Source: Desulfoscipio geothermicus DSM 3669 (lineage in GTDB: Bacteria > Bacillota > Desulfotomaculia > Desulfotomaculales > Desulfallaceae). From it: DNA of 64,000 bases. The DNA lies in NCBI RefSeq assembly GCF_900115975.1, contig NZ_FOYM01000001.1, positions 1 through 64,000 on the forward strand, read 5' to 3'. Positions within the stretch are counted from its first letter, which is position 1, and the number at the start of each line of letters is the position of its first letter. Made by a program: the position numbers and the translations under genes. The notes under the pieces were generated by a model. It searched no databases. It was not told the DNA's origin and worked only from the letters and a program-made list of their open reading frames with translations. Below, one piece after another: positions 26,556 through 31,076 of this stretch.

Positions 26556-28436
26556 CTATTCAAACAGACGGATAACCGGCTTCTTGAATACATCCCACTG
26601 GCCACTGGCGGGATCGTACTTGAGGTTAACAAAGCAGAGCCAGTTTTCTTCGTCCATCTTCGGACAGTCGGAACGGAAGTAGTAACCGGGCCACCTGGTT
26701 TCTTCACGGAACAGCACGGTACGTACGTGTGCTTCAGCCTGCCACATCCGGTGGATGTTCTCCCAGCACCTCATGAGCTCGTGCAGGTCAGCGGCAGCCA
26801 GTTTCTCGGCGTCTTCCTTCATGAACTCGAGCAGTTCCAGAGCCCTGTCGAGCATGGGCTTGTTGGTGGTGAAGTTAGCGCTCACGCCGCCAACATACTC
26901 GTCCATGAGCTTCTGCAGGCGGAACATGAACATCTTGGGCTTAATGTAAGCCGGGTTGACTTCCGGATCGGTGGTGAAGTCTTTATTGGCTTCGTAAGTT
27001 TCCAGCGGCTTGTAGGTCAACGCTTTCAGTTCTTCTACCTTGGCCATGTCAACGTTGGGCTGGGTGTTGTTCTCAACGATGAACTTGATGGCAGCCTTGG
27101 CGGCAATTCTACCTTCAGCGTGGGAGCCGGAGGAGAACTTGTGGCTGGAAGCACCGGAAGCGTCACCGGCGGCAAACAGACCCTTGACGGTGGTCATGTT
27201 GGCATAACCCCAGAAGTACTCGGGCGGAGCGATGTCCTCGGGACCGGATACCCATGCGCCGGAACCGCCGGAGTGGGAGCCGATGAAGTAAGGCTCAGCA
27301 GCGGCAATCTCGGAGGACTTCTCTTCCGGAGCGGTGTTGGTGGCTGCCCACAGCAGGGCCTGGGAGATGGTCATGTCGAGGAAGTCTTCCCAAGCTTCGG
27401 CTTCCAGTTCCTTCATTTTCTTCTTGAAGGCCTTGGGATCATCTTTATAAGCATCGGCCAGCTTGGCGATGGCTTCTTCAGTCCTCATGTAGATGGGGCC
27501 TTTGCCTTCGCTTACATCCAGCATGCCGAGGTAGTTGCGCAGGTTGGCCGGAATCGGCTTGACCAAGCCGTAAGGAGCCCAGTTTTGCAGTTCGTCTCTG
27601 CGCTCAACCATGTACTCGCCGCCGAACGCGTTGGTGGCTCTGGATTTGAAGAGCAGGAACCATGCGCCGACCGGGCCGTATGCATCCTTGAAGCGGACCG
27701 GGATGAAGCGGATTTCCTGACAGGTCATTTCAGCGCCGGCACGGATGGTGAAGTATGCGCTGGAACCGGTGCTGAACGGAGGATACCAGGAACGGCCGAG
27801 ACCTTCACCGGTGGAGCGGGGCTTGAATACGCCTACGGCACCGCCCATGGCAGCCAGAACGGCTTTGGCCTTGAATACGTAGAATTTATTTTCGCGAACG
27901 CTGAAGCCCACAGCACCAGCGATTCTGTCGCCGTCGAGCAGCGGCTCGATAACGAATACACGCTCGTAAATATTGTCCATGCCCAGGGCGTTCTTGGCAG
28001 CTTCAGCAACGATTACCTTGTAGGATTCACCGTTGATCATGATCTGCCAGCGACCTTCGTTTACATACTCGCCGTCGTCGGTTTTCCAAATGGGCAGGCC
28101 CCACTTTTCAAACAGGTGCACGGTGCCGTCAACGTGGCGGGCAATGTTGTAGACCAGGTCGTCACGGGCAACGCCCATCAGGTCGTTCTTAACATACTCG
28201 ACGTACTGCTCAACGGTGTTTTTGCCTTTGCCAACACCAATGTATTGGTTAATAGCGGACAGACCCATGGCCACCGCACCACTGCGGTCCATCGAAGCCT
28301 TGTCCACGAGGGTGACTTGCAGGCCGTTTTTCTTTGCCCAATAAGCTGCTTCCACGGCCGCCCCGCAGGCTGCCATGCCGCCGCCTACAATCAGAAGGTC
28401 AGTGGTAACTTCAACAGTTTCAAAATTCATCGGCAT
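26556..28436 (-). CDS. aprA: Adenylylsulfate (APS) reductase alpha subunit
   Basis: 626 residues. It reduces APS to sulfite and AMP on FAD in the cytoplasm, with electrons from AprB. FAD-binding GGGMAACGAAVEAAYWAKK at ~18, DRSGAVAMGLSAINQY at ~50, GRSWYPPFSTGSSAYF at ~220 and FAAGDASGASSHKFSSGSH near 430 are all standard dissimilatory AprA sequence. The length is slightly shorter than delta-proteobacterial AprA. AGGAGG precedes the first ATG by about ten bases; a second ATG two codons on is possible. It lies 50 bases after aprB and is co-transcribed with it. Confidence 0.98.
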   Translation of the reverse strand: MPMNFETVEVTTDLLIVGGGMAACGAAVEAAYWAKKNGLQVTLVDKASMDRSGAVAMGLSAINQYIGVGKGKNTVEQYVEYVKNDLMGVARDDLVYNIARHVDGTVHLFEKWGLPIWKTDDGEYVNEGRWQIMINGESYKVIVAEAAKNALGMDNIYERVFVIEPLLDGDRIAGAVGFSVRENKFYVFKAKAVLAAMGGAVGVFKPRSTGEGLGRSWYPPFSTGSSAYFTIRAGAEMTCQEIRFIPVRFKDAYGPVGAWFLLFKSRATNAFGGEYMVERRDELQNWAPYGLVKPIPANLRNYLGMLDVSEGKGPIYMRTEEAIAKLADAYKDDPKAFKKKMKELEAEAWEDFLDMTISQALLWAATNTAPEEKSSEIAAAEPYFIGSHSGGSGAWVSGPEDIAPPEYFWGYANMTTVKGLFAAGDASGASSHKFSSGSHAEGRIAAKAAIKFIVENNTQPNVDMAKVEELKALTYKPLETYEANKDFTTDPEVNPAYIKPKMFMFRLQKLMDEYVGGVSANFTTNKPMLDRALELLEFMKEDAEKLAAADLHELMRCWENIHRMWQAEAHVRTVLFREETRWPGYYFRSDCPKMDEENWLCFVNLKYDPASGQWDVFKKPVIRLFE

Positions 28437-28486
28437 TTATATTAACCTCCTCCGTAAAGTTCTTTAAATAACAAGCCTTAATTTGG

Positions 28487-28930
28487 TTATTTTTTGATGG
28501 TGGGTACTTCGTCCATCAGCAGGGATGCCGGTTCGGTGAACAGGGCCTGGCTGTTCAGGTCGTCCTGGTCTGCCGGGAACCCGCCGTCAGGCACTGCAGT
28601 ACCTTCTTCAGTGGTCCGGATGGGGAACTTGAAGCGCTTGACCATTCCGTTTCTGAACTTAACGGTCCACATAATATTGTCAGAACCTCTCAGAGGAGTT
28701 ACACTGGCGCCCATGGGGACGAAGTCAGCGTAACCGCGCAGGTCCATAGCTTGCTGCGGGCAGGCTTTGGCGCAGCAGAGGCACTCCCAGCAATGCCAGG
28801 GATCACGGTTGTAGGCTTTCATTTTTTCTTTGTCCAGCACCATCAGATCGTTGGGGCATGCATACATGCAAGCGGTTTTGTCCTGACCCTTGCAGCCGTC
28901 ACATTTCTCGGTCATTACAAAAGTTGGCAT
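28487..28930 (-). CDS. aprB: APS reductase beta (iron-sulfur) subunit
   Basis: 147 residues with two [4Fe-4S] motifs, CDGCKGQDKTACMYACP (residues ~10-26) and CWECLCCAKACP (~47-58), then a beta-rich middle and a C-terminal tail (FTEPASLLMDEVPTIKK) that in AprBA wraps around the alpha subunit. It shuttles electrons from Qmo to the AprA flavin. GGGAGG lies before the ATG. It is the first gene of the apr transcript, but a 900-base gap with RNA-like structure separates it from sat. Confidence 0.98.
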   Translation of the reverse strand: MPTFVMTEKCDGCKGQDKTACMYACPNDLMVLDKEKMKAYNRDPWHCWECLCCAKACPQQAMDLRGYADFVPMGASVTPLRGSDNIMWTVKFRNGMVKRFKFPIRTTEEGTAVPDGGFPADQDDLNSQALFTEPASLLMDEVPTIKK

Positions 28931-29084
28931 TTATTCAACCTCCCGTTCCCAATTTGTTTAAAATTTCCGTGCAAATTATCAAAAAGATGTGTTACCAGTT
29001 GCTTTAAGATTGGCACAACATGGTTTTGAGGGGTTAAGTAAATCAATCAGCTAGAGAAAATAACTTAACCTTTCTCCTGGTTTC

Positions 29085-29470
29085 CAAAACTTACGCATAC
29101 ATATTCAAACTATAGCGTAAGTTTTTCACCCGTCCGGCAAACAGGTGGCAGTGTCACAGGATTCAACTGCTTGGCTGTGGCCTTTCGACCACATACCGGG
29201 TGGTTATCTAAAACCGCCACTTAGAGTATTCTGCCCGGTAGAGGGTGTTACCCTCGCCTATTTCCCAATGTCTCAGCGCCCGACTTTCGCTCCGTGTCTT
29301 TGCGACGCTTCATCGGCTACACTGCTTAGAAACCCTTCTCCTCCCAAATAAACCAAAAATGTTTTTTGATTTTGTGCCCGGCATAACACAGTATGCCGCG
29401 CTTAAAACCACCTCCTTCAAATGCTGTTCAGGTCTCGGGCGCCAGGTTGGCTACCCGGTGGCGTGAGTTT
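29085..29470 (-). ncRNA. Candidate structured RNA between sat and aprB
   Basis: On the minus strand ~380 bases are GC-richer than their AT-rich surroundings and can form many hairpins: 29,440-29,463 (CGCCA/TGGCG), 29,380-29,397 (GGCAT/ATGCC), 29,241-29,255 (GAGGG/CCCTC), 29,199-29,220, 29,177-29,192 (six pairs closed by a GAAA loop) and a GTC-GCAA-AGAC turn near 29,305. It ends with a 9-bp AACTTACGC/GCGTAAGTT stem at 29,088-29,123. Repeated GNRA-type loops are typical of large structured RNAs. No frame reads as a protein. I cannot match it to a known RNA class. Confidence 0.5.
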
Positions 29471-29837
29471 ATTAACACTATTGGTTCCAAATCATAAGCG
29501 GCACTGATAATTACTATAACCTATGCTTAATATTAAAGTAGTTTCGACAAGCATGTTTCGGGTTCCTTCTTTTTCAGGAAATAAAATTACACTTTTTTAT
29601 AGTAATTTTCGACCGAAAAAGAAGCATGTAACCGGATCCGGCATTCCAGGCATATTATATTCAGCACTTCAACCATATATTAGTAAAAAATATGGCATTA
29701 AAATATATATGCCGGACTGTCCGCGTATTAAAGCAAACACTCGGGAATTCGCACCGCGCCTGCAAAACAGGGCACGGGCACATCCCTTTCTTTTACAATA
29801 ACTAATATACAATGCTTGCTGTATTACAAGATTGTTG

Positions 29838-31076
29838 TTACTTCTGCGGACCGGGGATGTCCTCGTAAGCGCCCTTCTTGATTTCCACTTTTTCCGCGGT
29901 CTTGTAGTATTCGCGGAGGATTTCCATAACTTCGGGACGACCGAATTCCTTCGGAATCTCCTCGCCATCCTGCATCATGCGGCGGAACTTGGTGCCGCTG
30001 ACGACGCAGCGATCTTCCGGACCGTGCGGGCAGGTGCGCTGGCTGGCCATGCTCTGGCACTTGTAGCAGTAGAAGGTCCAGGCTATCAGCATGGGCTTGA
30101 GTTCCAGGGCGCCCGGCCAGAGTTCATCGAAAATCTTCTGAGCGTCGAAGGGACCGTAGTAGTCGCCCACACCGGCGTGGTCACGCCCCACGATGAGGTA
30201 TTTGCAGCCCCAGTTTTGACGGAACACGGCGTGCAGCAGGGCTTCACGCGGCCCACCGTAACGCATTTCCATGGGGTACACGCCCAGGGCGATGTTCTCT
30301 TTCGGGAAGTACTTTTCAACCAGCACTTCATAGCACTTGGTGCGTACTTCGCCCGGAATGTCGCCGGGTTTCAAAGCGCCGACAATGGCGTGGATAAAGC
30401 AGCCGTCCACCATGCCGCTTTCCAGGGCGAACTTGCAGAGGTATTCGTGTGAACGGTGCATGGGGTTCCGGGTTTGGAAAGCAACAACATTGGACCAGCC
30501 TTTTTCTTCAAAAAGCTTTCTGGCTTCCGCGGGATACAGGTAGTACTTGGGATATTTTTGAGGATAAACGCCTTCATTCAGGACCTTGATGGGGCCGCCC
30601 AAGTTGAATTCGCCTTGTTTCATAACGCTGGCCACACCGGGGTGTCCTTCGGCGTCCAGGGTCTTGAATACTTCACGGCACTCGGCTTCCTTGTCGTAGG
30701 TGTAAATTTCTTCAACCTTCATGGTGGCGTACAGTTCTTTGGAAGCCCTGTCATACAAAGCTACTTCCATGCCTTCCTTGAGGCCGATGGCGTCTTTTTC
30801 CTCGCCGGTGATGGACAGGGTAACAGGCATAGGCCACATGGTACCGTCGGTCAGTTTAAGATCAAATACGCAGCCGGTGTAATCATCCTTTTTCATGAAG
30901 CCAGCCAGGGGTGTGAATGCACCAATGCCAAGCATCAAAACATCGGAAGTTTCCCGGGAGCTCATGTACACCTTGGGCAAACTTTCCGCCCGCTTGATTT
31001 CAGCTTCCCTTTCTTCGCCGTACAGCAACAAGGGCTTGAGTTTTCCTTCTGGGCCATGCGGTTTGGGTAGCGCCAT
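29838..31076 (-). CDS. sat: Sulfate adenylyltransferase (ATP sulfurylase)
   Basis: 412 residues. It activates sulfate with ATP to APS and pyrophosphate, the first cytoplasmic step of sulfate respiration. Active-site motifs [12 protein letters not shown] (~200) and GRDHAG (~295) are intact. A cysteine cluster CYKCQSM, then CPHGPEDRC, near residues 340-360 fits the metal-binding site seen in many bacterial and archaeal homohexameric enzymes. There is no fused APS kinase, as expected for the dissimilatory form. AGGAGGGG lies before the ATG. It is upstream of aprBA on the same strand but 900 bases away; a 24-bp palindrome and a CRP/FNR-type site lie upstream. Confidence 0.98.

What the first reader, a model, noticed from the sequence alone, without database searches (positions are those of the whole stretch)
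29085..29470. Possible large structured RNA embedded between sat and aprB
The gap between two genes of the sulfate-activation pathway is 900 bases, far longer than any other gap in the block. About 380 bases of it, on the transcribed strand, can fold into at least six local hairpins, including six base pairs closed by a GAAA loop and a GTC-GCAA-AGAC turn, and no protein frame is convincing. It does not match any riboswitch, RNase P, tmRNA or group II intron core I can recall. It could be a regulatory RNA that sets the ratio of Sat to AprBA, or a transposable-element-like RNA.
Basis: partly seen in the sequence, partly recalled or inferred. Interest (0 to 1): 0.75.

Follow-up and report, generated by a model that had tools for sequence, protein, structure and literature searches.

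The report
Stranded transposon guide RNA beside aprBA
The folded RNA between the sulfate genes sat and aprB is a left-behind guide RNA of a small IS607-type jumping gene that inserts at ribosome-binding sites, here lodged in a leader sequence that related bacteria conserve upstream of aprB; it is a new RNA family of a known kind, not a new type of gene switch.

Summary
(1) Window 29339-29076, minus strand (same strand as sat, aprB and aprA), is a complete TnpB omegaRNA (guide RNA, also called reRNA) plus right end of an IS607-type element. A covariance model built without the window finds it at 177.5 bits, E=3e-61. About 120 copies lie in 38 of 113 genomes of the class. Full copies carry IS607 TnpA and an atypical TnpB, with this RNA at their 3' end. 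The copy in the window belongs to a tnpB-less 'solo' branch whose intact members in relatives have left end, promoter, omegaRNA and right end. (2) Window 29340 to about 29610 is a separate aprBA leader conserved in Desulfallaceae, with one covarying hairpin. Eleven relatives keep this leader without the insert. Rfam knows neither part. Elements of this family sit behind GGAGG, and 27 of 40 copies lie at Shine-Dalgarno spacing before a start codon. The host genome has only tnpB fragments of this family and no second target for the guide, so a stranded, probably inert guide RNA read through with aprBA is most likely. No expression data exist.

The parts
29076..29339 (-). solo (tnpB-less) IS607-type TnpB omegaRNA scaffold plus right end; about 264 nt; left limit uncertain by a few bases (29339-29334)
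   Evidence: CM R1 built without the window: 29299-29076, 177.5 bits, E=2.8e-61, model 1-239/239; extra 5' domain 29339-29300 shared with solo copies L210-L220, L021, L025; z=-4.08
29079..29334 (-). closing stem P0: GGTTTC 29334-29329 with GAAACC 29084-29079
   Evidence: formed in the minimum-energy fold; kept in the solo branch, with a compensatory A-T pair in L226
29241..29255 (-). stem P1 GAGGGT/ACCCTC
29195..29239 (-). stem P2 ACCGGG/CCCGGT
   Evidence: the outer A-T pair is swapped relative to T-A in the other copies
   Evidence: 6 of 7 pairs show changes on both sides across 28 copies
29148..29170 (-). stem P4 GCAGT/ACTGC enclosing the conserved TGAATCCTGTGAC
   Evidence: nearly invariant, so little covariation information
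29128..29146 (-). stem P5 ACCTG/CGGGT
29086..29125 (-). right-end hairpin AAAACTTACGC/GCGTAAGTTTT, 11 bp perfect
   Evidence: hairpin retained with a different sequence in L003/L004
29076..29084 (-). element terminus GAAACCAGG; the guide would begin at 29075
   Evidence: GAAACCAGG or a one-base variant in 40 distinct copies
29056..29075 (-). inferred 20-nt guide AGAAAGGTTAAGTTATTTTC (flanking leader sequence)
   Evidence: position immediately after the right end, by analogy with IS607 TnpB; no second GGAGG-flanked match in the own genome
29340..29345 (-). GGGAGG insertion box (TAM-like, Shine-Dalgarno-like), part of conserved leader block C
29340..29610 (-). aprBA leader conserved within Desulfallaceae
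   Evidence: nhmmer profile of 11 relatives' leaders matches window 29610-29330(-), E=1.8e-16; nothing significant outside the family
29380..29397 (-). leader hairpin GGCATA/TATGCC
   Evidence: 4 of 6 pairs with changes on both sides; 7 cells against 1.7 in shuffles, 0/500
28487..28930 (-). aprB, APS reductase beta subunit
   Evidence: PF12139 E=1.5e-40
29838..31076 (-). sat, ATP sulfurylase
   Evidence: PF01747 E=2.7e-91

Best explanation
A small non-autonomous IS607-type element of the 'omegaRNA-only' kind inserted, in the transcribed orientation, at a GGGAGG box of a pre-existing aprBA leader in the lineage of this Desulfallaceae bacterium. It then lost its left end and promoter, leaving the omegaRNA scaffold and right end. 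In intact relatives the scaffold would bind TnpB, and the sequence just past the right end would serve as guide next to a GGAGG TAM, which is also the Shine-Dalgarno core. That would mark the empty site for cutting and help the element persist. Here no TnpB of this family remains, so the RNA is most likely a stranded guide RNA read through as part of the sat-aprBA transcript, with at most incidental effects on it. Shown by sequence: homology, structure, element anatomy, insertion point, empty sites in relatives, lack of an intact family TnpB. Inferred: TnpB binding, the TAM, guide use, the loss of the left end, present inertness.
For: Part of the gap recurs in the own genome and 24 of 100 relatives carry the element. 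Full copies carry IS607 TnpA (NF033518, E=2.8e-57) and a TnpB (NF040570, E=3.8e-15), with this RNA after tnpB; the TnpB model matches Cas12f (E=4.6e-8), ISFba1 TnpB (E=2.5e-4) and RuvC folds. A CM from 28 copies without the window finds it at E=2.8e-61. Covariation: 10 pairs, 45 cells against 13.6 shuffled. The solo branch shares the window's 5' domain, and copies L213 and L217-L219 keep left end, promoter and right end without tnpAB. Eleven relatives have the leader without the insert. GGAGG directly precedes the left end in 10 of 11 left ends examined, GGATG in the other.
Against: All counted stems are paired in the window copy although it is only 60-72% identical to other solo copies, so decay is not visible. 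That fits either a recent insertion from an unsampled branch or continued selection. Block C of the relatives' leader resembles the 5' start of the solo omegaRNA (AGAGAGGAAAAGGTTTCT), so the left boundary is ambiguous. The 'lost left end' step rests on this one site; a search for a general signature at other copies was negative.
Confidence: 0.86

Rival explanations
1. A cis-regulatory RNA (riboswitch or attenuator) native to the sat-aprBA operon, with the whole 29076-29610 region acting as one leader.
For: The Desulfallaceae leader (29340-29610) is conserved in 12 genomes and has a covarying hairpin. The insert lies inside it and reads in the same direction.
Against: The best-structured part, 29339-29076, is absent from the gap in all 11 relatives and recurs at unrelated loci. 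No Rfam riboswitch matches. The leader is not detected outside the family. No terminator-like site was found in 28900-29900.
Confidence: 0.12
2. An exapted, still functional guide RNA: the orphan omegaRNA works in trans with another TnpB or TldR-like protein to bind or silence a target, for example in its own promoter region.
For: All stems intact. The own genome has several TnpB-domain proteins of other families. TnpB exaptation as RNA-guided repressors (TldR) is known (PMC13418256). 20 of 38 carriers lack a family TnpB yet keep the RNA.
Against: No TnpB of this family is intact in the genome. No second GGAGG+guide site beyond the control count, 6 against 9. The insert is not shared at this locus by any relative.
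Confidence: 0.1
3. Chance GC-rich sequence with incidental hairpins.
For: The left half, 29310-29470, folds no better than shuffled sequence.
Against: E=2.8e-61 to an independent covariance model, z=-4.08 with correct boundaries, and covariation well above shuffled and slid controls.
Confidence: 0.01

Closest known systems
IS607-family transposon with TnpB and its omegaRNA/reRNA
   Same: Serine-recombinase TnpA with MerR-type HTH, TnpB gene, structured RNA overlapping the right end, insertion after a GG-containing site, guide drawn from the right flank.
   Different: This copy has neither gene; the family TnpB lacks the usual Cys pairs and has His where Thermus relatives have Asp at RuvC-III.
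RAGATH-18 reRNA with IS607 TnpB such as ISFba1 (Cell Res 2024, PMC11061315)
   Same: IS607 TnpB guide RNA next to the right end; reported TAM AGGAG or GAGGG, also Shine-Dalgarno-like; TnpB fold match to 8iaz.
   Different: No RAGATH-18 match even at E<=5 in canonical copies; here the 5' part of tnpB-linked RNAs appears to reach into tnpB, whereas the reRNA of ISFba1 is reported independent of the coding sequence.
TldR-type exapted TnpB with guide RNA
   Same: TnpB-derived guide RNA outside an active transposon.
   Different: No partner protein or regulatory target found here.
IStrons of group B (IS607 plus group I intron, PMC4227781)
   Same: IS607 derivative inserted at GG-containing sites, carrying a structured RNA.
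   Different: No group I intron match in Rfam.

Membership tests
IS607-type TnpB omegaRNA | lies at the 3' end of tnpB and spans the right end in autonomous copies | tested here: met
   L040, L043, L049 and others; shown for relatives, as the window copy has no tnpB
IS607-type TnpB omegaRNA | conserved secondary structure with compensatory changes, shared by the window copy | tested here: met
IS607-type TnpB omegaRNA | linked TnpA is an IS607 serine transposase | tested here: met
   NF033518 193.3 bits against cut-off 110 for L043 TnpA
IS607-type TnpB omegaRNA | linked TnpB is an RNA-guided nuclease family member | tested here: inconclusive
   NF040570 56 bits, below cut-off 100; fold matches Cas12f, ISFba1 TnpB and RuvC; RuvC-III Asp replaced by His
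IS607-type TnpB omegaRNA | RNA binds TnpB and directs cleavage next to a TAM | not testable with these tools
   needs RNP purification and a TAM assay
RAGATH-18 RNA | match to the Rfam RAGATH-18 model | tested here: not met
   no match at E<=10 in the window or E<=5 in seven family loci
aprBA riboswitch or attenuator | conserved with the gene across relatives | tested here: not met
   omegaRNA part absent in 11 relatives; only the leader 29340-29610 meets this, within one family
aprBA riboswitch or attenuator | changes expression in response to a signal | not testable with these tools
   needs reporter or RNA-seq data

The most novel reading that the evidence does not exclude
This IS607 lineage is a self-spreading, promoter-bearing omegaRNA-only element aimed at Shine-Dalgarno sites, whose TnpB carries a His-substituted RuvC-III and may bind more than cut. 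Such stranded guide RNAs could then act as RNA-guided regulators at translation starts, the copy in the aprBA leader being one.
Probability: 0.12. Interest if true: 0.8.

Novelty: new variant of a known kind. Interest (0 to 1): 0.48.

Why it matters
It adds an uncatalogued TnpB guide RNA family, with about 120 copies to test, to a class of sulfate reducers and relatives. It shows tnpB-less omegaRNA elements that keep both ends and a promoter. It also shows a mobile element whose target motif is the ribosome-binding site itself, so that each insertion gives a different start region as guide. It corrects the idea of a dedicated Sat/AprBA switch, while pointing to a separate conserved aprBA leader that is worth testing.

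Tried and rejected
Rfam on 27000-31000 at E<=10, on the whole window, and on canonical copies: no relevant match. PDB sequence search with TnpB, single and profile: none. Idea that truncated copies arise by TnpB-guided repair leaving a duplicated guide upstream: no general signal, dropped. Search for a second genomic target of the window guide: no excess over control. Leader profile outside Desulfallaceae: only a weak hit at E=0.037. No paper found in the held library on IS607 or TnpB targeting Shine-Dalgarno sequences; many journals are not held. The count of P3 pairs used a register shifted by one and is ignored; one search is the valid count.

Full report
What was claimed. The gap is 907 bases and has no convincing ORF; the neighbours are ATP sulfurylase and APS reductase beta. 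Rfam gives nothing at gathering scores in the whole window or at E<=10 around the gap apart from a chance snoRNA match at E=7.5.

It is repeated. A search of the own genome with the gap found three further partial copies, and a search with the best of these found matches in 24 of 100 related genomes. Copies in G056 repeat over about 2 kb. Full copies encode an IS607-type transposase (NF033518, 193 bits against a cut-off of 110) and a TnpB relative (NF040570 56 bits, TIGR01766 38 bits), and the structured RNA follows tnpB and ends at the element's right end. An AlphaFold2 model of the TnpB from an alignment of ten relatives (mean pLDDT 80, pTM 0.50) matches AsCas12f (E=4.6e-8), ISFba1 TnpB (E=2.5e-4) and RuvC resolvases. 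So the RNA is a TnpB omegaRNA (reRNA).

The window copy is a member by an independent test. From 28 copies, the window not among them, a covariance model of 239 positions was built. Across these copies 10 of 23 pairs show changes on both sides, 45 cells against 13.6 in shuffles, and sliding the partners by 1-3 columns destroys the signal. The model finds the window at 29299-29076, minus strand, end to end, 177.5 bits, E=2.8e-61, with no non-standard pair marked. It finds about 120 copies in 38 of 113 genomes of the class.

The window copy belongs to a tnpB-less branch. Upstream of the model's first position, solo copies in several genomes share AAAGGTTTCTAAGCAGTTACATCCGATGATGCGTCGCAAAGACACG, and so does the window, from 29339 on. 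GGTTTC pairs with the terminal GAAACC to close the RNA; with these boundaries the fold has z=-4.08. Four solo copies (L213, L217, L218, L219) are whole small elements: AAGGAGG or GAGGAGG, a left end TTGTAAGCAGCTAC like that of the autonomous copies, a TTGACA/TATAAT-type promoter, a very short ORF, the omegaRNA, and the right end. The window copy lacks the left end and promoter. It is 60-72% identical to the other solo copies yet keeps every counted stem.

Where these elements insert. Of 11 left ends examined, 10 begin directly after GGAGG and one (L047) after GGATG. After the right end, GAAACCAGG, a start codon of an ORF of at least 80 codons follows within 3-16 nt in 27 of 40 distinct copies. 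The rate is 24% at all GGAGG sites and 13% at all GG sites of the same loci (Fisher P=1.5e-8 against GGAGG). So the family sits at Shine-Dalgarno sequences, in the direction of the downstream gene. A published IS607 TnpB group guided by RAGATH-18-derived RNA has the TAM AGGAG or GAGGG (PMC11061315), which makes a GGAGG TAM plausible here, but it is inferred.

The site in the window. In eleven other genomes of the family the sat-aprB gap is 517-859 bp and aligns with the window except for the insert. The relatives share a leader with blocks AGAAGGAGCC...GTCGAAA, GGAGGTGRTT plus a hairpin, and GGGAGAGAAAGGGT. The insert interrupts the last block. A profile of the relatives' leaders matches window 29610-29330 at E=1.8e-16 and nothing convincing outside the family. 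The hairpin at 29397-29380 covaries: 4 of 6 pairs, 7 cells against 1.7 in shuffles. The 12 sequences are related, and the hairpin was chosen on this alignment, so its support is moderate.

Function. The own genome keeps only fragments of this tnpB, no IS607 TnpA over the cut-off, and TnpB-domain proteins of other families. No second place carries the guide next to a GGAGG-like TAM beyond the control count. Twenty of the 38 genomes that carry the RNA have no TnpB of this family at E<=1e-10, though some are incomplete. The simplest reading is a stranded guide RNA transcribed through with aprBA. Use in trans with a foreign TnpB is not excluded. Whether the insert or the leader affects the Sat:AprBA ratio is untested.

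Limits. No expression data were available. The left boundary is ambiguous by a few bases because leader block C resembles the RNA's start. The TAM, guide start and loss of the left end are inferences. The GGAGG background in the insertion test comes from the same fetched loci. Absence of literature applies to the held library only.

Noticed in passing
alignments A2 and A7; L040 4743-6176 and relatives: The family TnpB lacks the usual Cys-pair zinc ribbon and has an invariant His where Thermus relatives (L074, L076) have Asp in RuvC-III; RuvC-I Asp and RuvC-II Glu are kept. Whether it still cuts DNA is open.
   Followed up: partly
window 29340-29610 and L082-L092: A conserved aprBA leader in Desulfallaceae with three purine-rich boxes and a covarying hairpin, unknown to Rfam and not found outside the family.
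   Followed up: partly
L002, L003, L004 (own genome contigs C39, C49, C34): The other three copies of the own genome lie 7-9 nt before the start codons of what look like an MFS transporter, an acyl-CoA dehydrogenase and a TatD-like hydrolase (judged from sequence, no family search run).
   Followed up: no
L217, L218, L219: The solo elements carry a four-codon ORF with its own Shine-Dalgarno sequence (ATGAGAGTTAAGTAA) between promoter and omegaRNA, similar in most solo copies.
   Followed up: no
L217-L219 omegaRNA, between the P2 strands: An extra insertion of about 87 nt in the apical part of P2 in the Pelotomaculum propionicicum copies.
   Followed up: no
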